Origin: Aurantiacibacter spongiae
Lineage (GTDB): Bacteria > Pseudomonadota > Alphaproteobacteria > Sphingomonadales > Sphingomonadaceae
Length of the DNA stretch: 64,000 nucleotides
Direction of reading: 5' to 3'
Assembly: GCF_003815535.1 (NCBI RefSeq)
Contig: NZ_RPFZ01000001.1
Location: 1,736,001-1,800,000 of the forward strand
Under the pieces are notes generated by a model. That model was not told where the DNA came from and did no database searches. It saw nothing but the letters and a program-made list of their open reading frames with translations. Position 1 is the first letter of the stretch; each line of letters opens with the position of its first letter. Made by a program: the position numbers and the translations under genes. This document shows positions 7,453 to 33,970 of this stretch, one piece after another.

Positions 7453-9054
7453 ATGCAAGGTGGGTCGCGCCATTCTTCCGTTAGCCCGGTGAGGCTCGCC
7501 GCTGCAGCGGCGAGCCTCACCTTTCTCGCCGTTCCATGCGCCGCCTCTGCGCAGGCCGAAGCGACGCCGGACACGGCGAGAACCAGTGTGGCCCCTTCGA
7601 ACGATGCCGTCGCGCGGGCGATACGTGCCGAGGCGCGCGGTCGCATCGGCGGTTTCTACGCGGCCCGCGGCTTCTGGCCGCTTTGGGTGGAAAATGGTCG
7701 CCTGTCTTCTGCGGCAGAGGCATTCGTATCGCTGGTCGAGAGCGCCGAGGCCGACGGTTTGCGACCACGCGATTACGATCCCGAAGGACTGGTGCGGCTG
7801 ATCGAGGCGGCTCGCTCCGGCGAGCCGCGTGACCTCGCGCGTGCCGAACTCCGGCTGTCACGTGGCTTCTCGCAGTTCGCCCTGGATATGGCCCGCCCCA
7901 ACCGGGAAACGACCTATTACGACGATGCCGTGCGTCCCGGGAACGAGAGGCCCGAAGAAATCCTTCGCCGTGCTGCGCTCGCGGAAGACTTTACGGCCTA
8001 TATCGCCGGCATCGAATGGATGAGCCCCTATTACGTGGGTTTGCGCAAGGCGCTGATCGACGCCAGCCCCCGAACGGGCGCGGACCGCGCTCCGGCGATC
8101 GTCTATAACGGGCCGCTCCTGCGCGTTGGAGATCAGAACCTTCGTGTGCTGCAATTGCGCCGGAGGCTCGGGCTGCCGGCGGGCGATACCTTCGATACCG
8201 ACTTGCGCGATGCGCTGGCGGACTTCCAGCGCTCGCACGGACTTACTGCCGATGGCGTGCTGGGCCCGCAGACGGTCGCCGCTCTCAACACCGCCGCGGT
8301 TTCGCGACCCGGCAACATCACGACGCTGCGGGAAAATCTCGAGCGGGCGCGCGAATTGCCCGGGCCGTGGACCAAGCATATCGTCGTAAACGCCGCTGCC
8401 GCGCGTCTCGCCTATTTCGACGAAGGCGAAGAGCAGGGTGCAATGAAGGTCGTCGTGGGCACGCCCCAGACCCCCACGCCGATGATGGCCGGAATGCTTC
8501 GGTACGCGACGCTCAATCCTTACTGGAACGTCCCTGTCAATCTCGTGCAAAAGACGATCGCGCCCGCCGTCCTGCGCGGGGCATCGCTTGACGCGATGGG
8601 GTACGAGGCTCTGTCCGACTGGAGCGCGGATGCCCGCGTGATCGATCCCTCGACCGTAGACTGGCGCGCAGCGGCCGCGGGCCGGGCGCAGGTTCGCGTT
8701 CGCGAACTACCGGGTAGCGGGAACGCGATGGGCAGCGTCAAGTATCAGTTTCCCAACGATCAGGGCATCTATCTCCACGATACGGACAATCGCGCGCTGT
8801 TTGCCGAGGATCGGCGCCAGCGAAGCAACGGTTGCGTCCGGCTCGAGGATGCGAGCGAACTCGGGCGCTGGCTGTTCGGTTCGATGCCGGCGGCGGATGG
8901 AAGCGCGCCGGAACAGCACGTCGCCCTGCCCCGGGGCGTTCCGGTTTTCCTCACCTACCTGACCGCTGTGCCGCGCGAAGACGGAACGATTGCCTATTAC
9001 GACGACGTCTATGGCCGGGATGGCGGACGCGCGCGGCTCGCCTCGACCGACTGA
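7453..9054 (+). CDS. L,D-transpeptidase (YcbB/LdtD-like)
   Basis: A 533-residue periplasmic peptidoglycan cross-linking enzyme. A signal peptide (RLAAAAASLTFLAVPCAASA) is followed by the L,D-transpeptidase scaffold domain, a peptidoglycan-binding repeat around residues 220-280 (LRVLQLRRRLGLPAGDTFD and DGVLGPQTVAALN) and the YkuD catalytic domain. The active-site histidine is in GIYLHDTDN and the catalytic cysteine in RSNGCVRLED. These enzymes form 3-3 cross-links and need a signal peptide to reach the periplasm. A perfect 34-base palindrome at 7488-7521 encodes the signal-peptide core. The gene is 6 bases after a lipoprotein gene. Confidence 0.92.
   Translation: MQGGSRHSSVSPVRLAAAAASLTFLAVPCAASAQAEATPDTARTSVAPSNDAVARAIRAEARGRIGGFYAARGFWPLWVENGRLSSAAEAFVSLVESAEADGLRPRDYDPEGLVRLIEAARSGEPRDLARAELRLSRGFSQFALDMARPNRETTYYDDAVRPGNERPEEILRRAALAEDFTAYIAGIEWMSPYYVGLRKALIDASPRTGADRAPAIVYNGPLLRVGDQNLRVLQLRRRLGLPAGDTFDTDLRDALADFQRSHGLTADGVLGPQTVAALNTAAVSRPGNITTLRENLERARELPGPWTKHIVVNAAAARLAYFDEGEEQGAMKVVVGTPQTPTPMMAGMLRYATLNPYWNVPVNLVQKTIAPAVLRGASLDAMGYEALSDWSADARVIDPSTVDWRAAAAGRAQVRVRELPGSGNAMGSVKYQFPNDQGIYLHDTDNRALFAEDRRQRSNGCVRLEDASELGRWLFGSMPAADGSAPEQHVALPRGVPVFLTYLTAVPREDGTIAYYDDVYGRDGGRARLASTD
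7488..7521. repeat. Perfect 34-bp palindrome inside the transpeptidase signal-peptide codons
   Basis: The stretch from 7488 to 7521 is identical to its own reverse complement over all 34 bases (arms GGTGAGGCTCGCCGCTG / CAGCGGCGAGCCTCACC). It begins 42 bases after the lipoprotein stop and 35 bases into the transpeptidase frame. It is followed by CTTTCTC, not a full T-run. It may act as a terminator of the lipoprotein transcript, an mRNA hairpin limiting translation, or a protein-binding site. Confidence 0.8.
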
Positions 9055-9137
9055 TCCTTCGCTGTTGCCAGCCGCCCGGCGAATGGTAGTCTCCTCGGGG
9101 AACATCCGGTCATCAGCCGGCAAGAGGGGAGAGGACT

Positions 9138-10769
9138 GTGGCCGAACGACGGCTGACGCGCAGCTATTGCGACTGGTTCGCCGATGAGGCGATACTCGAT
9201 TGCACCATCGGCGGCCTGCTGAGGAAACAGGCTGGCCGGACCCCCGACGACCACGCGCTCGTCGAGGGACTTTCCGACGGAACGGCCGGGCGACGCTGGA
9301 CCTATGCCGAACTGCTGCACGACGCCGACCGTCTGGCGCGTTCGATGGTGTCTCGATACCGGAAGGGAGAGCGCGTGGCGGTCTGGGCCCCGAATATCCC
9401 GGAATGGGTAATCATCGAATATGCCGCGGCGCTTGCCGGACTGACCCTGGTAACGGTCAATCCCGCCTATCAGAAGCGCGAGCTCGACTACATCCTGCGC
9501 CAGTCCGGCTCCGCGGGACTTTTCCTGATCGAGGAGTTTCGCGGCAATCGGATGGGAGAAATCGCCCGGGGCGTCGCAGGCGGTATTCCTCACCTGCGCG
9601 AAGTGATCGACATGCGCGACGAGGCGGCCTTCTTCGGGGGCGGGGACGAGGCGGCCAGCACCCTTCCCGAAATCGCGACGAGCGACCCGGCGCAGATACA
9701 GTACACATCGGGCACGACCGGCTTTCCCAAGGGCGTGGTCCTGTCGCACCGCAACCTTGCCAACAACGCGCGCCTGTTCGTCGAGAGCGGCGAGTTGGAG
9801 GGCGGGGCGACCATCGGGCTGACGCCGCTGTTCCACACGATGGGCTGTTCCATGTCCGTACTGGGGTCCATGCAGGTCGGCGCGACCTATGTGCCGCTGG
9901 TAGGCTTCGATCCGGACGCCGCGCTTGACCTCATGGAAAGCGAGAAGGTCGTGTGGACGATATCCGTTCCCACCATGGCGATGGCGATGATCGAGGCGCA
10001 GCGAAAACGTCCGCGCGATCTTTCAGCGCTTCGGGTGATCGGCGTCGGCGGGGCGATGGTCGCTCCCGAACTGGTCCGCGCCGCGCGCGAGGTGCTCGGT
10101 GCGGAAATACGCGTCGCCTACGGCCAGACCGAAAGCAGTCCGCTCATAACAACCTGCCGGCCCGGCGACTCGGACGAGGACATCGCCGGCACCATCGGGC
10201 GACCGGCATCAGGTTGCGAGGTAGGGATTTTCGATCCGGAATCGGGTGATGTCCTCCCCTGTGACACGGTCGGGGAGATCCGTGCGCGCAGCTATGCCAC
10301 CATGATAGGCTACAATGACGATCCCGAAGCGACGGCTGCCGCCATCGATGGCGAAGGCTGGCTGCATACCGGTGATCTTGGGCGTATGGACGATCGGGGA
10401 TTCGTCACCATTACCGGCCGCGTGCGCGAAATGATCATCCGCGGCGGTGAGAACCTGTTTCCGGCGGAAATCGAGAATGTCCTGCTCGAACATCCCGATG
10501 TGGCCGAATGCGCGGTAGTCGGCGTGCCGGACGAGCGGTTTGGTGAGGGGGTCGCGGCCTTCGTTCGCACCGTAGACGACCGACCGCTGGACGTGGAAGC
10601 CCTTCGCGCGCATTGCCGGGCCCAGATTTCCGCGCAGAAATGCCCTGCTCACTGGGAGCGGGTGCGGGAATTCCCGCTGACCGGTTCGGGCAAGATCAGG
10701 AAGTTCAAGCTGCGCGAGCAGTGGGAGGCGGAGCATCGTGTCGCACCGCCGCAGGAGGAGGACGCCTGA
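9138..10769 (+). CDS. AMP-dependent acyl-CoA synthetase/ligase
   Basis: A 543-residue cytoplasmic adenylate-forming enzyme that activates a fatty or aromatic acid as its CoA thioester. The P-loop-like motif YTSGTTGFPKG is near residue 190, the A5 motif AYGQTESSP near residue 330, the TGDLG motif near 415 and the GRVREMIIRGGENLFPAEIE hinge near 430; the catalytic Lys is in GSGKIRKFKL at the end. The start is GTG with GGGGAGAGGA upstream. It most resembles the FadD3/cyclohexanecarboxylate-CoA ligase group, but the substrate is not decidable from sequence. Confidence 0.93.
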   Translation: MAERRLTRSYCDWFADEAILDCTIGGLLRKQAGRTPDDHALVEGLSDGTAGRRWTYAELLHDADRLARSMVSRYRKGERVAVWAPNIPEWVIIEYAAALAGLTLVTVNPAYQKRELDYILRQSGSAGLFLIEEFRGNRMGEIARGVAGGIPHLREVIDMRDEAAFFGGGDEAASTLPEIATSDPAQIQYTSGTTGFPKGVVLSHRNLANNARLFVESGELEGGATIGLTPLFHTMGCSMSVLGSMQVGATYVPLVGFDPDAALDLMESEKVVWTISVPTMAMAMIEAQRKRPRDLSALRVIGVGGAMVAPELVRAAREVLGAEIRVAYGQTESSPLITTCRPGDSDEDIAGTIGRPASGCEVGIFDPESGDVLPCDTVGEIRARSYATMIGYNDDPEATAAAIDGEGWLHTGDLGRMDDRGFVTITGRVREMIIRGGENLFPAEIENVLLEHPDVAECAVVGVPDERFGEGVAAFVRTVDDRPLDVEALRAHCRAQISAQKCPAHWERVREFPLTGSGKIRKFKLREQWEAEHRVAPPQEEDA

Positions 10770-15089: not shown

Positions 15090-15176
<87 letters not shown>

Positions 15177-15341
15177 TTTGTTCTTCTCACGTTCTCCCAA
15201 ATAATCTATAAAACCCGCAGAAATCCTAGGGATTTGGCCCTTGGATCGTTCCGGATCGTCCCACCTGTTCTCGGGGGTTCCAGACACTTTTGTGGGCCTT
15301 TTGAGGCCGTTTCGCAAAGGCCCAGATAAAAAGGCCCCCAC

Positions 15342-16565
15342 ATGCCGCTGACAGATACTCGCCTCCGCGCTCTCAAGCCCAAGGATAAGCCATACAAGGT
15401 AACCGATGAGCGCGGCCTCTATGTTGAGGTCACGCCGACCGGCAGCAAGCTTTGGCGGTTCCGATACCGGATCGGCGGTGCGCAAAAGAAACTCTGCATC
15501 GGCAGCTATCCCGACATCAGCCTCAAGCAGGCGCGAGACGCGGCCTACGAGGCGCGACGAGCAGTTGCTTCTGGGGGCGACCCTGCCTTTGAGAAGCGGA
15601 AGCGGAAAATCCGCGCCGAGTTCCTGTCTGCTCAGACGTTCGGAGCAGTCGCGCGTGAGTATATTGAACAGATGATGGTCCAGAATGGCCGCGCCGATGG
15701 CACGATCGTCAAGGCCAACTATTTCCTCGACAAGCTTGCGCCTGCCATCGGGAACCGACCCATCCACGAGATCGAGCCGTTCGAAGTCCTGGCTCCCCTC
15801 AAACGACTGGAAGCCACTGGTAAACACGAGACTGCGAAGAAATGCCGGTCGTTCGCAGGCCGCGTGTTTCGCTACGGTGTTGCTACCACCCGCTGCAAAT
15901 CCGATCCGACCAGTATGCTGAAGGGTGCTCTCGTAACGCCGAGAGCCACGCATTATGCAGCCATCCTCGAGCCCACCGAGCTAGGCGGGCTGTTGCGCGC
16001 AATCGACGACTTCACTGGCTACATGGTGACGAAGTTAGCTTTGCAGATCGCGCCGCATGTGTTCGTGCGCCCCGGCGAACTGCGGCACGCCGAATGGCAT
16101 GAGATCGACCTCGTCGATGGGGTCTGGAAGATTCCTGCCGGCAAAATGAAAGCGCGCAGAGCGCATGCCGTCCCGCTTTCCAAGCAGGTTAGAGGCTATC
16201 TCTCTGATCTGGGCGAGATGCTCGGCCGCGAAGGATATGTTTTCCCATCTGCGCGCAGCTCCAAGCGTCCCATGAGTGAAAACACGCTCAATGCCGCATT
16301 CCGTCGCATGGGATACTCGAAGGAAGAGGTCACCGCGCACGGACTCCGGGCGACAGCATCAACATTCCTGAACGAGTCGGGACTTTGGAATCCGGATGCA
16401 ATCGAGCGTGCCCTGGCACATGGCGACAGCAATGTTGTGCGTGGCATCTACCATCGCGGCAAACATTGGGACGAGCGTGTGCGGATGGCTCAATGGTGGA
16501 GCGACTACCTCGATGAGCTCCGGACAGGAGGAAAGGTCATCCAGGGCAAGTTTGCGAAGGGTTGA
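15342..16565 (+). CDS. int: P4-type tyrosine integrase
   Basis: A 407-residue site-specific recombinase. The N-terminal arm-binding DUF4102 domain shows LRALKPKDKPYKVTDERGL and IGSYPDISLKQARDAA; a core-binding SAM-like domain follows around residues 95-180. The catalytic residues are R in RPGELRHAEW, K in GKMKARRAHAVPL, H-x-x-R in TAHGLRATAST, H in LAHGDSN and the nucleophile Tyr in VRGIYHRG. It inserts and excises the element at the tRNA-Leu 3' end. Full length for the family. The 165-base interval before it is noncoding and could hold arm-type binding sites. Confidence 0.96.
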   Translation: MPLTDTRLRALKPKDKPYKVTDERGLYVEVTPTGSKLWRFRYRIGGAQKKLCIGSYPDISLKQARDAAYEARRAVASGGDPAFEKRKRKIRAEFLSAQTFGAVAREYIEQMMVQNGRADGTIVKANYFLDKLAPAIGNRPIHEIEPFEVLAPLKRLEATGKHETAKKCRSFAGRVFRYGVATTRCKSDPTSMLKGALVTPRATHYAAILEPTELGGLLRAIDDFTGYMVTKLALQIAPHVFVRPGELRHAEWHEIDLVDGVWKIPAGKMKARRAHAVPLSKQVRGYLSDLGEMLGREGYVFPSARSSKRPMSENTLNAAFRRMGYSKEEVTAHGLRATASTFLNESGLWNPDAIERALAHGDSNVVRGIYHRGKHWDERVRMAQWWSDYLDELRTGGKVIQGKFAKG

Positions 16566-25865: not shown

Positions 25866-27812
25866 ATGACCACACTGAATCTCCAGGCAAAACAAGACTT
25901 TCTCGAACGCGACGCGGCGACCCGCGATCCCGTCCGCGCGATCGCCGAGCTCGTCTGGAATGCGCTCGACGCCGACGCGACCAGCATCCAGGTGACGCTG
26001 GAGCGCAATGACCTCGGCGGCCTCGGCGCGATCCGCGTCGTCGACAATGGCTCTGGCATATCGGCTAAGAGCGCTGAGCATGACTTCGGCAACCTTGGCG
26101 ATAGCTGGAAGCGGGACACCCACCGCACCGGCCTTGGCCGCGCCATTCACGGCAAGGAGGGCCGCGGCCGCCTGCGCTTCTACTCGCTCGCGCAGCGGGC
26201 GCGCTGGTTCACGACTACCCGCTCGGAGGAAGGTCTCTCGTCGCGGACGCTAGAGATACACGCAAAGTCGCTCGAGCGCTGCGAGGTGGTCGAGGCCGAG
26301 GCGCCGACGGGCGAGAACACCGGCACGACCGTGCTCCTCACCATGCTCAAGGACACGTTCGACGCGCTTTCGACGCCCGACGCCTACCGGCAGTTCAGCA
26401 CGCTGTTCGCGCCCTATGTCCTGCAATATCCAAACGCCGAAATCTGGTTCAACGGCTTCAAGGTCGATCCCGACGTCACCATCCATCGCTGGCAGGACCT
26501 GCCACCCATGGTCATCCAGCTTCCCGACCGCACGATTGACGACCTCAAGGTGAAGGTCATCGAGTGGAAGTCGGCGAGCGAGACCCGCCAGATCCATTTC
26601 GGCGGCGAGGACGGCATCGTCCTCGGCTCGCAGCCCGCGCACGTCACCGCGCCGGGCTTCGAGTTCTCGGCCTACGCCTACAGCGCCTTCTTCCAGGAGA
26701 TCGCCGACGACAATCTGCTCGAGCTCGATAATCTCGGCGAGCCGAATTTCCTGGCCGTGGTCGGCCACATCCGCGAGGCGCTCGGCGACTATTTCCGGTC
26801 GCGGATGAGCGAGCAATCGCTCGGCGTCATCCAGGAGCTCAAGGACCAAGGCGCCTATCCCTACGAGGGCGAGCCGCGCGACGAGATCGAGCGACGCGAG
26901 CGGCAGGTCTTCGACATCGCGACCTACGCGATCAACTCGCACTCGCGCGACTTCTCGCGGGCCGAGACCCCGCTCAAGCGCATGACGCTGACCCTCCTAA
27001 AGGAGGCGATCAAGCACAACCCCGACGACCTCTCGACCATCCTCCAGGCCGTGGTGAACCTGGGCAAGGCCAAGCAGTCGGAGTTCTCGGCGCTTCTCAA
27101 GAAGACCCAGCTCGGCAACATCATCGGCGCATCAAGCCTCATCTCCGATCGCGTGACGACGCTTGAGGTGCTGAAGGGCATGGTCTTTGACCCCAAGTTC
27201 CGGCGAACCGTCAAGGAGCGCGGCGAGCTCGACGCGCTGGTTCGCGACAACACATGGCTATTTGGCGAGCAGTTCCACATTACCATGGCCGAGAGCGGCC
27301 TGACGAAGGTGATGAACCGCGTCGCGGAGGACCTAGGCGCCAAACGCAAGGGCCGGCGCAAGGTCACTAAGCTCGACGGCAGCACCGGGCGGGTCGATTG
27401 CTTCCTCGGCCGCTCGGTGCCGCATTCCGACGAGGGCAAGCGCGAATACCTTTTGATCGAGCTCAAGCGTCCCTTGCTCAAGCTCGGCCGCAAGGAGCTC
27501 GACCAGGTTGAGGACTATGTAAATGCGATCCGCCAGGAGGTCGAGTTCACCCACACCGACACCAGCTGGAACTTCTTCCTAGTCGCCAGCGAGTTCGAGA
27601 CCGACATTCACAGTCGAATCTATCAGAAGGATCGGCCCCACGGTCTCTTCCTCCACGGCGACAACTTCAAGTTCTGGATCAAGACCTGGGCCGAGGTCGT
27701 ACGCGAGAACGAGGCCCGGCTCCAGTTCGTCCAGAAGAAGCTGCAGGTTGAGGTCTCGGACGAGGAGATCGAGCAGCGCATCGCGGACCTCCGGCAGCTT
27801 GTCGTCAAATAA
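25866..27812 (+). CDS. GHKL ATPase fused to PD-(D/E)XK nuclease domain
   Basis: A 648-residue protein. Residues 20-110 are a GHKL (MutL/HSP90/MORC-like) ATP-binding domain: N-box AIAELVWNALDADAT with Glu28 and Asn32, G1 box VVDNGSGI at 58-65, G2-like region GLGRAIHGKEGRGRLRFYS. A transducer-like middle part follows. The C-terminal part contains WLFGEQFH near residue 475 and a restriction-nuclease core, Asp511 in GRVDCF and Glu532-x-Lys534 in LIELKRP, like Shedu/DUF4263 nucleases. Prokaryotic MORC-type ATPases with nuclease domains are known from restriction-linked loci, so antiphage action is likely. Start at MTTLNLQAK excludes a TTG extension from 25788. Confidence 0.83.
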   Translation: MTTLNLQAKQDFLERDAATRDPVRAIAELVWNALDADATSIQVTLERNDLGGLGAIRVVDNGSGISAKSAEHDFGNLGDSWKRDTHRTGLGRAIHGKEGRGRLRFYSLAQRARWFTTTRSEEGLSSRTLEIHAKSLERCEVVEAEAPTGENTGTTVLLTMLKDTFDALSTPDAYRQFSTLFAPYVLQYPNAEIWFNGFKVDPDVTIHRWQDLPPMVIQLPDRTIDDLKVKVIEWKSASETRQIHFGGEDGIVLGSQPAHVTAPGFEFSAYAYSAFFQEIADDNLLELDNLGEPNFLAVVGHIREALGDYFRSRMSEQSLGVIQELKDQGAYPYEGEPRDEIERRERQVFDIATYAINSHSRDFSRAETPLKRMTLTLLKEAIKHNPDDLSTILQAVVNLGKAKQSEFSALLKKTQLGNIIGASSLISDRVTTLEVLKGMVFDPKFRRTVKERGELDALVRDNTWLFGEQFHITMAESGLTKVMNRVAEDLGAKRKGRRKVTKLDGSTGRVDCFLGRSVPHSDEGKREYLLIELKRPLLKLGRKELDQVEDYVNAIRQEVEFTHTDTSWNFFLVASEFETDIHSRIYQKDRPHGLFLHGDNFKFWIKTWAEVVRENEARLQFVQKKLQVEVSDEEIEQRIADLRQLVVK

Positions 27813-28124: not shown

Positions 28125-28772
28125 ATGTTGGACGGGGTCTACATTCTCGAGACTTTAAGCCCTGAAGATTTCTTTGAGCGCCGGCTCGACGGCCATGCCG
28201 CCAACGAAATCCTGCGGATATTGGGAACCAAGACCGAATATCGCGTGGCTTTCACGCGCAAACTTGCCGAACGTGCGATCCGTGAAGCGGCGAGGCGGAA
28301 ATTCAAGATCTTCCATTTTTCTTCGCACGGGAGCAACACGGGCGTCACGCTCACAAATGGCAAGCGCTTGACTTGGGACAAATTCGTTGAACTCATCGCT
28401 CCAGTTGCGGGCGCGGATCATGCGCTGGTGATGGCGACCTGCGGTGGGGGCGACCGCGAACTCACGAAATCGCTTACCAAGGCCGGCGTGATCTTCGGCT
28501 GGGTGTTCGGCTCGACCGCCGACACCGTCCACTTTTCCGATTCGTGCCTAGCTTGGTCCATTCTCTATAATCGCCTCTATGACCATGGCTTCGAACCTGC
28601 GGCGCTTAAGACCACGCTAAAAGCGATTAACGCCGCCGTCGTCGGTGAATTCGTCTACCGGCGATGGGACGGCAAACGCTATTTACATTTCCCGACAACT
28701 AAGGCCGGAGCCGCCAAAATCCCGAGCGGGTCGCACAAGGTCCCGCGTGCAAGTGGAACCGATCATGGGTAG
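28125..28772 (+). CDS. Caspase/CHAT-like cysteine protease candidate
   Basis: A 215-residue protein with a compact caspase-fold signature. A first strand GVYILETLSP is followed, after a helical region, by KIFHFSSHGSNTGVTL with candidate catalytic His68 and by ADHALVMATCGGG with candidate catalytic Cys106. His in a SHG motif after a hydrophobic strand, and Cys about 40 residues later after a second strand, is the arrangement of CHAT and metacaspase-like proteases. Its stop overlaps the start of the Mrr-like nuclease gene by 8 bases, so the two are translationally coupled. Inferred role: a protease partner in an abortive-infection pair. Not matched to a named system. Confidence 0.62.
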   Translation: MLDGVYILETLSPEDFFERRLDGHAANEILRILGTKTEYRVAFTRKLAERAIREAARRKFKIFHFSSHGSNTGVTLTNGKRLTWDKFVELIAPVAGADHALVMATCGGGDRELTKSLTKAGVIFGWVFGSTADTVHFSDSCLAWSILYNRLYDHGFEPAALKTTLKAINAAVVGEFVYRRWDGKRYLHFPTTKAGAAKIPSGSHKVPRASGTDHG

Positions 28773-29688
28773 TGTTTCGCAATTCTTTCAGCCGCCGCTC
28801 TACTGGCAACAATTCGAGGAGCTCTGCGTCGGCCTGCTTACCGAAACCTATGATGTGCCCAACGCCCAGCAAGTCGGTCGACCTGGCCAGGCGCAAAGTG
28901 GCGTAGACATTTACGGAAGGTCGGCGCGTTTCGGGATGATCGGCATCCAGTGCAAGCGGCTCGCCGAACTGGACGAGAACAACAATCCCTTTCCCGGCGG
29001 GCCCATCAACCGCGCCTTTCTGCGCAAGGAAGCCAATGCGGCGCTCGCCTTCCAGCCCGATCTTAGACTCTGGATCCTAGCGACGACCGTGCGCCGCGAC
29101 ACCCGCGTGCAGGCTTGGGTCGATGAGCTCAACGACGAATGGGACCGTGCCAAGCGTGACCGTATCGCGATCGTATGGACTTGGGATGAGTGCATCTCGG
29201 CGCTCAACAACTATCCCCGGCTCCAGCGCGACTATTACCGCGACGTCATCGGTGTTCGCGCCCCTGCCGACCTTGACGAAATCATTCTCCAGACCTTCGC
29301 CATGGCGTTTCAGCGTCCCGCCTTCGAAATCCCGCTCCACTGCGAATCGCCGACCGAGTTTCTCGATGCGCTCAAGGATACGCAGCGAGCGGTTCGTACT
29401 GGCGAACTCGTCGATCGCGAATCACGCCACGTCATCCGCAAGGCGATCGGGGGCTATCGCGAACTGAGCGACGTCTCCGCGCGCGAGACGCTCGGCGAGA
29501 TCGATCGCTGCCTCCGCCGGCTACGGTCAGCGCTTGAGCAGGGCCTCAAAGATGGCACGATTCAGCGGACCAGCGGATATCTCGACATCCGAGACAGAAG
29601 CCTTGCCGACTACCTCGAAACCCTGCGCGAGTGCTGTGTCGATGACATGAGTCGCGTCCTGGTCAGGGCTGGGCTGCCCCCGATCTAG
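28765..29688 (+). CDS. Mrr-like PD-(D/E)XK nuclease-domain protein
   Basis: A 307-residue protein. The N-terminal 110 residues show a restriction-endonuclease fold of the Mrr_cat type: WQQFEELCVGLL helix with Glu, Asp48 in QSGVDIYG, and Gln62-x-Lys64 in IGIQCKRL. The remaining two thirds are helical (for example the SADLDEI-like region after residue 170) with no recognised domain. ATG at 28765 lies inside the end of the protease gene with GTGGAA upstream; an earlier in-frame ATG at 28645 would fall fully inside that gene. Likely DNA-cleaving effector, possibly gated by the protease. Confidence 0.78.
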   Translation: MGSVSQFFQPPLYWQQFEELCVGLLTETYDVPNAQQVGRPGQAQSGVDIYGRSARFGMIGIQCKRLAELDENNNPFPGGPINRAFLRKEANAALAFQPDLRLWILATTVRRDTRVQAWVDELNDEWDRAKRDRIAIVWTWDECISALNNYPRLQRDYYRDVIGVRAPADLDEIILQTFAMAFQRPAFEIPLHCESPTEFLDALKDTQRAVRTGELVDRESRHVIRKAIGGYRELSDVSARETLGEIDRCLRRLRSALEQGLKDGTIQRTSGYLDIRDRSLADYLETLRECCVDDMSRVLVRAGLPPI

Positions 29689-29707: not shown

Positions 29708-30229
29708 CTAGCTTAGTTGGATGAAACCTTTGCCATAAGCCAGCGCAAGTCCGACGAACAGGACGGCGGGTGGGAGCAGCCATTTGGCGGCCTTGAACCA
29801 GGTCTCGCCCGCGCGCACGCGGCTCCATTCGGCCTTGAGCAGCACTTGCGACAGAGCAATGATACGGTTCTGATCGCTCATCGGATCGACCCCGTATTCT
29901 TGGGCGAATGCGGCGTCGCGTAAGCGATCGAGCGCCTCGAGTACCGATTTCCACTCTTCCTTCTCGGGGTTCTCGCGAAGACGGATTCGATTCAGTGCTT
30001 CGTCGAAGTCGATAAGGATTTCCGCTTTTTTGTCACAGGCCTGAGTGCGGGCATTGCTGGCAAGGGTGAGGACGCGTGCAAGGTCGCTGCGTTGCGCGTT
30101 GATCCAATCCTGACGAAACTCGGTGGTCTTCTGTTCCTTGCCTAGAACCACGCCGATGAAAGCGGCACTCGCGGCAATCACCGCGGCTCCGACATAGGCT
30201 GCTGCCGTGACCGCCATTCTCCCCCCCAT
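29708..30229 (-). CDS. Two-transmembrane-segment protein of unknown function
   Basis: A 173-residue protein with an N-terminal membrane helix (AAAYVGAAVIAASAAFIGVV) and another near the C-terminus (WLLPPAVLFVGLALAYG). Between them lie about 110 polar helical residues beginning EFRQDWINAQRSDLARVL, a motif seen in many uncharacterised bacterial membrane proteins. A second ATG four codons in is an equally possible start. It converges with the Mrr-like gene, 19 bases apart, and lies downstream of the Gabija genes on the same strand. It could be a membrane effector or an unrelated passenger. Confidence 0.7.
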   Translation of the reverse strand: MGGRMAVTAAAYVGAAVIAASAAFIGVVLGKEQKTTEFRQDWINAQRSDLARVLTLASNARTQACDKKAEILIDFDEALNRIRLRENPEKEEWKSVLEALDRLRDAAFAQEYGVDPMSDQNRIIALSQVLLKAEWSRVRAGETWFKAAKWLLPPAVLFVGLALAYGKGFIQLS

Positions 30230-30401: not shown

Positions 30402-32165
30402 TCATCCAAGGCCAGCCTCCGCGATGAAGGGGGTTGGCGTGTTCTTCCAGTGAGACTGATCGGACGCTACGACGAGGACTCGCTTGGCTCGGGTCAGCCC
30501 CACATAAAACAGCCGTCGTGCCTCATCATAGGCTTCCTGCGTTGATGTCGAGAAGTGCGGGATACTGCCGTTGTTCATGCAGATCAAAGCGACACCATCG
30601 AATTCGCGCCCCTTGGAATTGTGCAGCGTGATCAGCTTGAGCGCATGCTCGGGATTGGCGAATAGGCCCATATCGGAGATCTGCAGATTCGCGAGATCGA
30701 CCTTGCTGGCCTGCATATCGGATAACATTTCTTCGGCGGAATCGATCAGCGGCTGTTTGGCGTTGCCCGGCAACCATTCCTCGAGTTCGAGATAGTCGCC
30801 CGCCTCGCGGGCGATAGCGCGCAGCCATACGACACCGCCGGGATGTTGGTCGGCAAGTTCGCGAGCGAGATAGATAAGGCCGAGTGCCGCGCGACGCCCC
30901 TGATAGCTGAACATATCATAGCGCGAGTTCCCGGTGAGATCACTGATGAGCCGAAACAGTGCTCGCTCGACACTCGGGAGTCCGAGGTAATTGCCGGCTT
31001 CGGCGCAGGCCCCAAGTTGCTCGGCAAGTCCGGCAAGCAGACGGCGACGCTTATAGGGGCGCGCGCCCGGACCGAAGACCGGGACGTCGAATTCACGGAG
31101 GGCGCGGGCAACGGGGATGAGATGCGTCCACCATGGCGCTAGGATCGCGGCCTTGCCAAGCGGGATGCCAGCATCCTGCAGGGCGGGCAGGAAATGGTCG
31201 GTGATGGCGTCGATCGGCCGGTCGACGTGGACGTAGTTCACTTCCGCCGCGAGCTGGGCTGCATCGCCCGCCGACTGCATCCCCGGCAGGGTGGGGATGA
31301 GTGTTGATGCAGTGCTGACTATCGCCGGCCCGCATCGGAAGTTGCCGGTCAGGGCCGTGTCGCGGTGCGCGTCGATCTGATCGCCGAACTGCTCGGCGAG
31401 TTCGGGGCGAGCGCCGGCAAAGCGCATGATCGACTGGTTCTGGTCACCAACGAGGAAGAAGCGGGTGTGGAGGAAATGCCGGAGCGCTCCAAAGATGGCG
31501 ATCTGGATATCCGTGGTATCCTGGAATTCGTCGATCAGCAGCCAGGCAAAGCGGCTCGCGATACCCCGTCCGACGAACGGGTGCTGTTGGAGAATCTTCC
31601 AAGAATAATAGAGGATCATCGCGAAATCGAGGTGTCCATGGGCGCGGACCCGTTCCCAATAGAGCGCGGCGGATTCGTCCGTGACGATGCCGGTCTCGAT
31701 ACCTTGGCCGCAGGGTTCGCCGTTCACGTCAATGCGAAGCGATTCATAGTCCTCGAACACCTGCCCGGCTGGCATTCGACCGAAGGCATCCTCGACCGCC
31801 GTCACGATCTGCTCGAACAGGCTGTTCTCGCGGGAAAGCACCTGAAACGACGCCGGTACCTCGGGAATCAGCCAGCTATAGGGACGCAGGATGAATTGCA
31901 GGCAGAAAGCGTGGATCGTGGAGATTTCACAGTGGTCCGCGATTGCGTTGTTGCCGTATGTGCGCAACCGGGCCTCGATCTCGTCGACCGCTGCATTGGT
32001 ATAGGTGATGCAGCCGATGAATTGGGGCGTGCCGACGACCTGATCGGCCAGCGTCAGTAGTTTGGCGAGAATGACCCGCGTCTTGCCACTGCCCGGGCAA
32101 GCCGTCAGCAGAAGATTGCCGTCATGTTCGACCGCCTCACGCTGTTCTGGTGTCAGCCGGATCAT
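30402..32165 (-). CDS. gajB: Gabija helicase GajB (UvrD/Rep family)
   Basis: A 587-residue SF1 helicase. Motif I is LLLTACPGSGKTRVI near residue 25, motif II LLIDEFQDTTD, motif IV ALTGNFRC, motif V ITLHNSKGREFDG and motif VI FYVGLTRAKRVL. In Gabija systems GajB senses DNA ends and hydrolyses nucleotides to activate the GajA nuclease complex. The ATG at 32165 overlaps the gajA stop as ATGA; a start 4 codons upstream is possible. A hairpin (AGCGCAG/CTGCGCT, 30385-30402) follows the stop. It is somewhat longer than the Bacillus reference protein. Confidence 0.88.
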   Translation of the reverse strand: MIRLTPEQREAVEHDGNLLLTACPGSGKTRVILAKLLTLADQVVGTPQFIGCITYTNAAVDEIEARLRTYGNNAIADHCEISTIHAFCLQFILRPYSWLIPEVPASFQVLSRENSLFEQIVTAVEDAFGRMPAGQVFEDYESLRIDVNGEPCGQGIETGIVTDESAALYWERVRAHGHLDFAMILYYSWKILQQHPFVGRGIASRFAWLLIDEFQDTTDIQIAIFGALRHFLHTRFFLVGDQNQSIMRFAGARPELAEQFGDQIDAHRDTALTGNFRCGPAIVSTASTLIPTLPGMQSAGDAAQLAAEVNYVHVDRPIDAITDHFLPALQDAGIPLGKAAILAPWWTHLIPVARALREFDVPVFGPGARPYKRRRLLAGLAEQLGACAEAGNYLGLPSVERALFRLISDLTGNSRYDMFSYQGRRAALGLIYLARELADQHPGGVVWLRAIAREAGDYLELEEWLPGNAKQPLIDSAEEMLSDMQASKVDLANLQISDMGLFANPEHALKLITLHNSKGREFDGVALICMNNGSIPHFSTSTQEAYDEARRLFYVGLTRAKRVLVVASDQSHWKNTPTPFIAEAGLG

Positions 32166-33970
32166 TCGGTGAGCCACTCATAGGCCTGCTCGATATAGGG
32201 CGGCAGATCGGACGCGAGATTTGCGTAGCGCGCTGCTATCTGCGCGAAGCGCGCTTTGCCAAAGCGCTTGGCGGTATTGAGCGTGATACGGCCAAGCTCG
32301 ACGCGCAGCGCCGTCTCTTCGGCGAGGCCCAGTCCCCCGAGCGCGAGCGTTGCGAGCCCATTCTCCATCTGCGTAAGGATCTGCGGCGCGCCGAGAGCAC
32401 GAACGGTCTCGATCAGCATCGGCAGGCGCCCGACCGATACCAGTTCACGTTCGAAAGTAGTGGCGCCCGCGAATGTGGACACAAAGTCGCTTTCCAGTGC
32501 CACCAGATCGGGGGCGTCGGTCTCCGGATCGAAGTCCTCGGCGTCGGACGGCTTCATGTCAGCGTCGGCCACGATGGCGCATTTCTTCTCGAGCGAGCCG
32601 GCGCGGAACAGCTTGGCATAGACGTCGAAATGGACGCCATGAATCGCGATAACCGAGATGCCGAGCCGCTCAAGCTTCACGCCGTACACATGCTCGATCA
32701 GCGCCGGGATCAGGAACATCTCGGCTGGCCCTTCCACCAGCATGACCTTGCGGGCGTAGAGCAATGCGCTCTTGGTTGCGTCGAGATAGCGTTCGAGATC
32801 GGCAATCTCTGGCGTGGTCAGCGCCGCATTGAGCGCGAGATTGCCCGCAGCAATGGTCGCGTCGTCGCGCTTGGTGAGCGATACAATGCTGCTCAGCGGA
32901 ACTTGTGAAGTCACTTGGGTACTGTGACTGGTCAGGATGGTCTGCAAGCCGATCGCGCGCAGGGCCGCGATCAGCGAAAATTGCAACTGGGGATGGAGAT
33001 GCGCTTCAGGCTCCTCGATCAGGATCAACTGGCCGGCCGAGCGGTTTAGCGCCATGCGCCGCTGGAGATATTCCATTAGGATCGCGATGTAGAGGATGTT
33101 GTTCATGCCAAGACCGTTGCGGCCGGGTTCGAACGAGGTGAGCGACAGGTCCGACAGAATGATTTTCAGGTTGCGAATGATCGCACGGAAGGTTGCGGCG
33201 GAGAGGCCGAGCGTGGCGTCCATCTCGAACGCGGGGCCAGAGACATCCTTGAACCGCGCGTCGATTGCCCCTGCTATCTCGGCGATAGTCGCCGAGTTCG
33301 CGATTGCCTGATTGGCCTGGTCGAGGATGGCAATCAGGGCATCCTGTTCGACCTGATCGATCTCGAACGCCTCAATGAGGCGGATAAGCGGTGACTGGCG
33401 AGGATTGCGTAGGTCGTTCTCGACATCACGAAGCGCGGGGAGATGAACGAGAAGGTAGGATTGCAGGTCAGCGAAGCGCACGGATTCACCGATCCCTTCT
33501 TCATCCCAGGCAATGTCGGTGAGGTCGATCGCGGGATCACCACCACCGCGGATTTCCCACTGATAGTCCTCAAGTGTCAGCGTCCCGGGTGCGATGTCAC
33601 CACTCGCAAGTTGCTCCCGGACAGCCGGGCGCGGACGGAAGCGGTAGAATATGCGCGCACGATCTGCGGCGGTCTTCCAAGTGCTGACCAGGGCTTCTTC
33701 GTTTACCTTGCCTTCGAACCCTGTCAGCTCAATGCCTATTAGAACCTGGCTTGGCTCGGCAATATCGATCGCGGAGTGGATGTCCTCGCGCAGCAGTGAC
33801 CGAAAGCTCGAGGGCAACATGTTGTCGAGACAGATCTGGATCGCTCGCAGGATAGCGGTCTTACCAGTGTTGTTCTCGCCAATGATGCAGCACAAATCAT
33901 CAGAGACGTTCACGTCAAGCGATGCGAAGGTGCGAAAGTTCTGAATTACGATCCGTGCTACCCGCATCAT
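32162..33970 (-). CDS. gajA: Gabija nuclease GajA (OLD-family ATPase with TOPRIM)
   Basis: A 602-residue protein. The N-terminal ABC-type ATPase has Walker A CIIGENNTGKTAILRA near residue 35, an OLD-family signature in GRNGLGMNN and Walker B LILIEEPEAHLHPQL near residue 335. The C-terminal TOPRIM domain has VMLVEGPAEMFLIPAL and IVADADMKPSD, the acidic metal site of the DNA-nicking centre. Gabija GajA cleaves phage DNA when nucleotides are depleted. ATG at 33970 (or 33967) follows AGGTGGGG; a GTG two codons earlier is less likely. Coupled to gajB by a 4-base overlap. Confidence 0.9.
   Translation of the reverse strand: MMRVARIVIQNFRTFASLDVNVSDDLCCIIGENNTGKTAILRAIQICLDNMLPSSFRSLLREDIHSAIDIAEPSQVLIGIELTGFEGKVNEEALVSTWKTAADRARIFYRFRPRPAVREQLASGDIAPGTLTLEDYQWEIRGGGDPAIDLTDIAWDEEGIGESVRFADLQSYLLVHLPALRDVENDLRNPRQSPLIRLIEAFEIDQVEQDALIAILDQANQAIANSATIAEIAGAIDARFKDVSGPAFEMDATLGLSAATFRAIIRNLKIILSDLSLTSFEPGRNGLGMNNILYIAILMEYLQRRMALNRSAGQLILIEEPEAHLHPQLQFSLIAALRAIGLQTILTSHSTQVTSQVPLSSIVSLTKRDDATIAAGNLALNAALTTPEIADLERYLDATKSALLYARKVMLVEGPAEMFLIPALIEHVYGVKLERLGISVIAIHGVHFDVYAKLFRAGSLEKKCAIVADADMKPSDAEDFDPETDAPDLVALESDFVSTFAGATTFERELVSVGRLPMLIETVRALGAPQILTQMENGLATLALGGLGLAEETALRVELGRITLNTAKRFGKARFAQIAARYANLASDLPPYIEQAYEWLTE

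What the first reader, a model, noticed from the sequence alone, without database searches (positions are those of the whole stretch)
28125..29688. Overlapping caspase/CHAT-like protease and Mrr-like nuclease genes: candidate new defence pair
A 215-residue protein with His68 (SSHG) and Cys106 (ATCGGG) in caspase-like order is translated in coupling (8-base overlap) with a 307-residue protein carrying a D...QxK Mrr-type nuclease core and an unassigned helical C-terminus. I know no named two-gene system of this composition. A plausible model is proteolytic release of a dormant nuclease.
Basis: partly seen in the sequence, partly recalled or inferred. Interest (0 to 1): 0.75.

Follow-up and report, generated by a model that had tools for sequence, protein, structure and literature searches.

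The report
Minimal caspase paired with Mrr-type nuclease
A mobile DNA element in a bacterium carries, inside an anti-virus gene cluster, a very small caspase-like protease gene next to a gene for a likely DNA-cutting enzyme; the same pair recurs in related bacteria and resembles, without belonging to, a recently described bacterial system in which a caspase switches on a nuclease.

Summary
ORF1 (28125-28772, 215 aa) and ORF2 (28765-29688, 307 aa) overlap by 8 bases, with H68, C106, D48 and QxK(62-64) as stated. ORF1 is a caspase-fold protein: H68 and C106 are identical in 21 of 21 aligned family members, and the nearest solved structures are SAVED-CHAT, caspases and MALT1. ORF2 has an Mrr-type nuclease motif and a conserved helical C-terminus. 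Both genes are under purifying selection. An ORF2 homologue directly follows ORF1 in 5 of 8 non-redundant close loci (four intact, in one family; the fifth, in Mesorhizobium, is frame-disrupted). The overlap is not conserved. Partners swap: close ORF1 relatives precede a HEPN-like or an unassigned 370-aa gene, a distant one overlaps another nuclease-like gene, and ORF2 relatives occur without any caspase. The nearest published system is Canu (Science 2025: caspase plus gated MBL-fold pro-nuclease): same logic and gene order, different nuclease fold and caspase architecture; ORF2 shows no insertion confined to caspase-linked copies. Verdict: a real defence-island module, a new variant of the protease-nuclease kind. 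Proteolytic control of the nuclease is likeliest but unproven.

The parts
28125..28772 (+). ORF1: minimal caspase/CHAT-fold protease-like protein, 215 aa, His68/Cys106; residues 194-215 are a locus-specific tail
28765..29688 (+). ORF2: Mrr-type nuclease-like protein (D48, Q62-x-K64) with a conserved helical C-terminal domain (about residues 165-307), 307 aa
28765..28772 (+). 8-base overlap of ORF1 and ORF2; not conserved in L002, L003, L006
29708..30229 (-). Small protein with apparent membrane segments (my reading), 173 aa, convergent neighbour; also convergent next to the pair in L002 (77%) and about 2 kb from an ORF1-like fragment in L078 (41%); possible accessory, role untested
25866..27812 (+). 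Upstream GHKL-ATPase gene with a nuclease-like C-terminus (weakly BbrUII/MutL-like); island neighbour, no homologue in the flanks held for the other loci
30402..32177 (-). Gabija GajB (UvrD-like helicase), island neighbour
   Evidence: PDLC00130, 1080.6 bits
32162..33976 (-). Gabija GajA (OLD-type ATPase/TOPRIM), island neighbour
   Evidence: PDLC00092, 1139.9 bits

Best explanation
ORF1 and ORF2 form a two-gene anti-phage (abortive-type) module. Shown by sequence: a minimal caspase-fold protease gene with an invariant His-Cys dyad, directly followed by an Mrr-type nuclease-like gene with an intact D...QxK motif, kept together under purifying selection, mostly among defence-type genes. Inferred: infection activates the protease (sensor unknown), which cuts or otherwise controls ORF2; ORF2 then cleaves DNA and stops phage replication, probably at the cost of the cell. 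The closest working analogue is Canu, reached here with a nuclease of another fold.
For: Caspase fold: AF2 model (pLDDT 67, pTM 0.68); the first 11 Foldseek hits are SAVED-CHAT, caspases, CED-3 and MALT1 (best E 6.2e-6; 6 hits with E<=0.001); a family profile finds one PDB sequence at E<=10, the CHAT protein 8tl0 (E 0.0014), with H and C aligned, and also finds TPR-CHAT-type proteins L019 and L020 (E 5.6e-6, 1.9e-5; type by my reading). Weak Pfam hits to CHAT, C14, C25 and C13 among family members. Dyad identical in 21 of 21. Nuclease: Mrr_cat E 0.0045, below cutoff; the N-terminal half matches N-terminal parts of long open frames in other genomes. Linkage: ORF2 homologue directly downstream of ORF1 homologue in window, L002, L003, L006, L004, 5 of 8 non-redundant close loci, while most flanking genes differ. 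Parallel dN of the two genes in all 6 pairs of loci compared (e.g. 0.100/0.102, 0.227/0.232). Defence context: Gabija, Mrr-nSTAND3 gene beside L003 and L006, a weakly GHKL/NOV_C gene beside L004. A distant relative overlaps a different nuclease-like gene by 4 bases, within 5 kb of DUF4917 and TIR genes. Precedent: Canu, caspase upstream, pro-nuclease downstream.
Against: No experiment. ORF2 has no loop or insertion that relatives without a caspase neighbour (L036, L037, L038) lack. ORF2 relatives occur without an ORF1 homologue: L036-L040, and of 15 of 398 phylum genomes with an ORF2-profile match only the window's own has an ORF1 homologue in the stretch fetched (0 of the other 14; most of these match one domain only). 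ORF1 relatives occur without ORF2: L005, L053/L076, L077 and the distant ones read. L004, the only pair outside the family, is frame-disrupted in both genes. The paired loci are related lineages, not independent origins. L002 has no evident defence neighbour. The ORF2 model gave no significant PDB match (Avs4 prob 0.92, E 0.044). ORF1 has no recognisable sensor or oligomerisation domain.
Confidence: 0.42

Rival explanations
1. ORF1 is itself the effector (a toxic caspase-like protease) and the second gene is a changeable sensor, regulator or second effector; in this locus the Mrr protein senses phage DNA through its nuclease and C-terminal domains.
For: Close ORF1 relatives have unrelated second genes: Mrr-type, a 370-aa protein (L053, L076), a HEPN-like protein (L077). 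The 370-aa family sits directly behind HipA-type genes (L083, L084) and an abortive-infection gene (L082) in 3 of 4 plasmid loci opened, of 26 records with a match, so that gene pairs with toxin-type first genes. Four enterobacterial ORF1-like loci have a divergent HTH gene and no nuclease directly beside them.
Against: ORF2 keeps the full D...QxK motif, which a pure sensor would not need; the Canu caspase acts on a nuclease.
Confidence: 0.22
2. The two genes are independent defence genes that travel together in islands; ORF2 is an autonomous Mrr-type restriction-like nuclease with its own sensor domain.
For: ORF2 relatives of 29-40% identity are full-length genes without an ORF1 homologue in Agrobacterium, Rhizobium, Aliarcobacter and Erwinia plasmids (in Aliarcobacter L039 a 92-aa gene precedes on the same strand); a 60% relative has a different first gene (L036); spacing varies.
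Against: Order, strand and adjacency are kept in 5 loci with mostly different flanks, and the dN values run in parallel.
Confidence: 0.24
3. ORF1 restrains ORF2: the protease degrades or clips the nuclease in uninfected cells, and infection blocks the protease, as in a toxin-antitoxin pair.
For: A controlling gene first and a toxic gene second is the usual antitoxin-toxin order (recalled, from no call). Partner swapping is common in toxin-antitoxin operons (recalled).
Against: The nuclease occurs without an ORF1 homologue on several plasmids, so it does not need this restraint; the Canu caspase works by activation.
Confidence: 0.1

Closest known systems
Canu (KaeCanABC), caspase-nuclease defence system, PMC12799240 (seen: abstract, sections 4, 8, 9 and figure legends)
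   Same: Caspase-family protease gene upstream, nuclease gene downstream, defence-island setting, protease control of a DNase (shown for Canu, inferred here).
   Different: Canu nuclease is MBL-fold with gating insertions; here it is Mrr-type, with no insertion confined to caspase-linked copies. CanA has an Ig-like fold and Canu loci carry TPR/Ig domains and other genes; ORF1 is a bare 215-aa domain. I had no CanB sequence to search with.
HamM/Avs1a-type nucleases with trypsin-like proteases (same paper)
   Same: Protease-nuclease pairing that moves between defence systems.
   Different: Trypsin-like protease fused to a defence protein; MBL-fold nuclease gene upstream.
SAVED-CHAT protease (PDB 8tl0)
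   Same: Closest solved relative of ORF1 by both sequence profile and fold.
   Different: ORF1 is too short for a SAVED domain, and I saw no CRISPR or cyclase gene beside the loci read.
Mrr-type N-terminal domains of large defence proteins (e.g. Avs4, 8dgf; Mrr-nSTAND3 gene of L003)
   Same: Related N-terminal nuclease-type domain.
   Different: In ORF2 the domain is followed by a short helical domain, not by a STAND ATPase.
First-gene plus ORF2 homologue in Rhizobium brockwellii (L036)
   Same: ORF2 homologue (60%) as second gene with a 4-base overlap.
   Different: First gene is a 267-aa protein with only a weak AbiV match (E 0.049), not a protease.

Membership tests
Caspase/CHAT superfamily (clan CD) | His then Cys catalytic dyad after core strands | tested here: met
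   H68 and C106 in 21 of 21 aligned members; strands E62-66 and E96-104 precede them in the AF2 model
Caspase/CHAT superfamily (clan CD) | Caspase fold | tested here: met
   first 11 Foldseek hits SAVED-CHAT, caspases, CED-3, MALT1; 6 with E<=0.001; but model pLDDT 67, TM to query 0.42-0.57, rmsd 5-10 A
Caspase/CHAT superfamily (clan CD) | Pfam CHAT or Peptidase_C14 above gathering score | tested here: not met
   CHAT 13.6 bits (cutoff 24), C14 12.9 (cutoff 21.4)
Caspase/CHAT superfamily (clan CD) | Proteolytic activity | not testable with these tools
   none
Mrr-type PD-(D/E)XK nucleases | D...QxK motif | tested here: met
   D48, Q62, K64 kept in 9 of 11 aligned members (window, L002, L003, L006, L036-L040); L031/L032 lack K
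Mrr-type PD-(D/E)XK nucleases | Mrr_cat above gathering score | tested here: not met
   17.5 bits (cutoff 21)
Mrr-type PD-(D/E)XK nucleases | PD-(D/E)XK fold in the model | tested here: inconclusive
   no Foldseek hit with E<=0.001; Avs4 prob 0.92 E 0.044, viral RNA polymerase chains prob 0.97 E 0.11, viral terminase nuclease and SfsA lower
Canu | Caspase gene directly upstream of a nuclease gene | tested here: met
Canu | MBL-fold nuclease | tested here: not met
   no MBL family among Pfam hits up to E 1; Mrr-type motif
Canu | Active-site-gating insertions in the nuclease | tested here: inconclusive
   a low-confidence loop follows QxK (pLDDT under 50 at 69-78); it is shared with caspase-less L036-L038, shorter in L040 and L031/L032
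Canu | Ig-like or TPR domain with the caspase | tested here: not met
   ORF1 is 215 aa and the caspase-like region fills residues 1-190; no other domain
Canu | CanB-type partner gene | not tested
   no CanB sequence at hand
Canu | Anti-phage activity needing both active sites | not testable with these tools
   none
Gabija (neighbouring system) | GajA and GajB full-length models | tested here: met

The most novel reading that the evidence does not exclude
A family of minimal, sensor-less caspases serves as a plug-in initiator protease for unrelated nuclease-type effectors (Mrr-type, another PD-(D/E)XK type, HEPN), so that bacteria have reached the caspase-to-nuclease cascade several times with different nuclease folds, independently of Canu's MBL pro-nuclease.
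Probability: 0.2. Interest if true: 0.78.

Novelty: new variant of a known kind. Interest (0 to 1): 0.52.

Why it matters
Canu showed that a bacterial caspase can switch on a nuclease. A second caspase-nuclease pairing with an unrelated nuclease fold, and with swappable partners, would make protease-gated nucleic-acid destruction a recurrent design rather than one lineage's invention. The proteins are small (215 and 307 aa), which makes the pair convenient for testing how a bare caspase is triggered and whether nuclease control needs a gating insertion.

Tried and rejected
Rejected: (1) chance ORFs - excluded by homologues and selection. (2) ThiN, NADPH-dependent FMN reductase and Cmr3 hits to ORF1 - weak and contradicted by fold and dyad. 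(3) A caspase-Mrr fusion in L004 (533-aa ORF) - a frame artefact: the ORF1 match is split at residue 171 and the ORF2 match at about residues 40-72. (4) Overlap as evidence of a pair - not conserved. (5) The 370-aa gene of L053/L076 as a nuclease - only an IVEAKG motif, no Pfam or NCBIfam hit up to E 1, so not counted as one. (6) Phage carriage - no ORF1 match in 50,697 phage records and none by viral-contig scans with ORF1 and two distant relatives or ORF2; one ORF2 relative in the phage collection lies on a 582-kb Salmonella record. (7) More copies of the two alternative pairs: the L060 nuclease-like gene was found only in its own genome (1 of 4) and on no plasmid, the L077 HEPN-like gene only in its own (1 of 100); both pairs rest on single loci.

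The 8 close loci are window, L002, L003, L004, L005, L006, L053/L076 and L077. Of 26 plasmid records with the 370-aa family I opened 4; of 48 plasmid records with ORF2 matches I opened 10.

Full report
Setting. The window is G000:C1:1736001-1800000 of a 2.86-Mb, two-contig genome. A tRNA-Leu (15090-15176) is followed by a tyrosine-integrase-like gene (15342-16565), and the region further contains ParB-, SSB-, ArdC- and coupling-protein-like genes (my reading of the translations, not scanned), that is, probably an integrative conjugative element. Its cargo from 25.8 to 34.0 kb is a defence island: a GHKL-ATPase gene with a nuclease-like C-terminus, the reported pair, a small protein with apparent membrane segments, and a Gabija system (GajB 1080.6 bits, GajA 1139.9 bits).

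Observation. Both genes exist exactly as reported. The 8-base overlap is real but local: in L002, L003 and L006 ORF1 ends 64, 68 and 72 bp before ORF2 (coordinates), and the ORF1 tail that creates the overlap (about residues 194-215) has pLDDT under 50.

ORF1 is a caspase-fold protein. Single-sequence searches are weak: Pfam CHAT E 0.045 and C14 E 0.088, both under cutoff; a single-sequence search of PDB chains gave nothing relevant. Of six distant family members scanned, four gave weak CHAT hits (P0007, L007, L008, L016), L008 also C25, L018 C13, and L015 no peptidase hit (that these families belong to clan CD is recalled); unrelated weak hits appear beside them. A 10-sequence profile searched against all PDB sequences returned one sequence at E<=10, the CHAT protein 8tl0, with both catalytic residues aligned (E 0.0014); an earlier profile also found two TPR-CHAT-type proteins in genomes (L019, L020; E 5.6e-6 and 1.9e-5). 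An AF2 model from 5 sequences (pLDDT 67, pTM 0.68) gave SAVED-CHAT, caspase-4, caspase-8, CED-3, MALT1 and caspase-7 as the first 11 Foldseek hits (best E 6.2e-6; TM to query 0.42-0.57; from rank 12 on other alpha/beta folds mix in). H68, G73 and C106 are identical in 21 of 21 aligned members, window included. The model is of modest confidence, so the fold rests on the agreement of these lines.

ORF2 has an Mrr-type nuclease motif. Mrr_cat E 0.0045 is under cutoff. D48, Q62 and K64 are kept in 9 of 11 aligned members, down to 29% identity; L031/L032, which share the C-terminal domain behind a different Mrr-like domain, lack the lysine. L031 matches a candidate defence model, PDC-M58A (E 1.7e-5). 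The N-terminal half of ORF2 matches an unassigned phage family, phrog_8991 (E 1.4e-14), and N-terminal parts of long open frames elsewhere. The AF2 model (pLDDT 75, pTM 0.57) gave no significant PDB match; Avs4 (prob 0.92, E 0.044) and two viral RNA-polymerase chains (prob 0.97, E 0.11) were the best-rated by probability.

Occurrence. ORF1-type matches are rare: 5 of 396 genomes of the order, 7 of 398 of the phylum, 7 of 385 of the class, 6 of 201 of one genus; the first three tallies include the window's own genome, the second and third include weak CHAT-protein matches, the fourth includes two genomes already found. Of 8 non-redundant close loci (54% identity or more), 5 have the ORF2 homologue directly downstream (window, Sphingomonas sp. 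YR710 L002, S. pruni L003, S. oligoaromativorans L006, Mesorhizobium sangaii L004). One has a 370-aa unassigned gene with a 3-base gap followed by a DUF900 hydrolase gene (L053/L076), one a 435-aa gene with a HEPN-like RNQCAH motif (motif recalled; weak sub-cutoff Cas13e match at that place; no Pfam hit; L077), one an integrase-like gene (L005). In L004 both genes are frame-disrupted, so intact pairs are known here only from one family. Flanks of the five pairs share only the small membrane protein (window/L002) and an Mrr-nSTAND3 gene (L003/L006). Defence-type neighbours are evident at window, L003, L006 and (weakly) L004, not at L002. dN runs in parallel for the two genes across the six pairs of loci compared (0.100/0.102, 0.227/0.232, 0.209/0.235, 0.207/0.236, 0.193/0.244, 0.039/0.026); dS is saturated except for L003-L006, where omega is 0.074 and 0.071.

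Partners swap. None of the distant ORF1 relatives I fetched has an ORF2 homologue in the stretch held, but one (P0007, L047/L060) overlaps by 4 bases a 274-aa gene with a PD-(D/E)XK-like motif (my reading) and a weak NOV_C match (E 0.15), within 5 kb of DUF4917 and TIR genes. Its dyad is kept but G69 is alanine. Relatives of a Salmonella 4-kb-plasmid copy are in 6 of 5426 E. coli genomes; the three loci I opened lie between dinD and yicC (L068, L069) or yicL (L067), two with a tyrosine recombinase in the same interval. These four have a divergent HTH gene and no nuclease directly beside them. ORF2 homologues occur as second gene behind a weakly AbiV-like gene (L036, 60%), behind a 92-aa gene (L039), or alone (L037, L038, L040). 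In the phylum sample 15 of 398 genomes match the ORF2 profile, most in one domain; none of the other 14 has an ORF1 homologue in the stretch fetched. The 370-aa family of L053 sits directly behind HipA-type genes (L083, L084) or an abortive-infection gene (L082), but not in L085, in the 4 of 26 plasmid records opened.

Comparison with what is known. Paper searches found no caspase plus Mrr two-gene system; the library lacks most subscription journals, so this is not proof of absence. For most listed papers I saw the listing only; of PMC13092281 and PMC7159879 and PMC11417357 I saw passages or word counts. In PMC7159879 caspase-superfamily domains of another conflict system are said to go with neighbouring alpha/beta-hydrolase genes, which recalls the DUF900 gene of L053. 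PADLOC-DB 2.0.0 of 2023 gives no model for ORF2 and only a weak Cmr3 match (E 0.012) for ORF1. The nearest system is Canu (PMC12799240; abstract, sections 4, 8, 9 and legends): a caspase (CanA, MALT1-like with an Ig-like fold) with CanB activates a downstream MBL-fold pro-nuclease, CanC. Gene order and logic agree. Nuclease fold and caspase architecture do not. The paper itself proposes that more such partnerships can be found.

Mechanism. I favour protease-controlled nuclease activity (0.42). For: conserved linkage with both active sites intact, and the Canu precedent. Against: ORF2 has no segment that caspase-less relatives lack; the loop after QxK (residues 65-82, pLDDT under 50 at 69-78) is shared with L036-L038, so it is either a general feature or not a protease site. 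The rivals are ORF1 as effector with changeable second genes (0.22), independent genes in one island (0.24) and restraint of the nuclease by the protease (0.10).

Verdict. A real, recurrent module of defence islands; a new variant of the protease-nuclease kind; interest 0.52. The bolder reading, a plug-in minimal caspase with interchangeable nuclease effectors, is not excluded (0.2), but of its three nuclease-type pairings two rest on single loci.

Noticed in passing
window 25866-27812 (+): GHKL-ATPase gene with a C-terminal LIELKRP nuclease-like region, weakly like BbrUII/HgiDII; a candidate single-gene defence or restriction protein.
   Followed up: partly
window 29708-30229 (-): Small protein with apparent membrane segments at both ends; relatives sit beside the pair in L002 and about 2 kb from an ORF1-like fragment in L078.
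   Followed up: partly
window 15090-16565: tRNA-Leu followed by a tyrosine-integrase-like gene: probable attachment end of an integrative conjugative element.
   Followed up: no
L053 8439-9551, L082 4001-5128, L083 3989-5113, L084 4037-5113: A 370-aa family of unknown function (IVEAKG motif read in L053) is the second gene behind caspase-like, abortive-infection or HipA-type genes.
   Followed up: partly
L053 9729-11207: DUF900 alpha/beta-hydrolase gene third in the caspase-like gene's row.
   Followed up: no
L060 7841-14193: Caspase-like gene overlapping a PD-(D/E)XK-like gene by 4 bases, near DUF4917 and TIR genes: a second, unrelated caspase-nuclease arrangement.
   Followed up: partly
L066 803-1387; L067, L068, L069 at about 9001-9585: Enterobacterial caspase-like gene with a divergent HTH gene, on a 4-kb plasmid and in a chromosomal interval next to dinD (6 of 5426 E. 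coli genomes; three loci opened).
   Followed up: partly
L031 973-1914, L032 931-1938: The ORF2 C-terminal domain behind an Mrr-like domain whose QCK is replaced by QCA/QCV; the L031 protein matches candidate defence model PDC-M58A.
   Followed up: no
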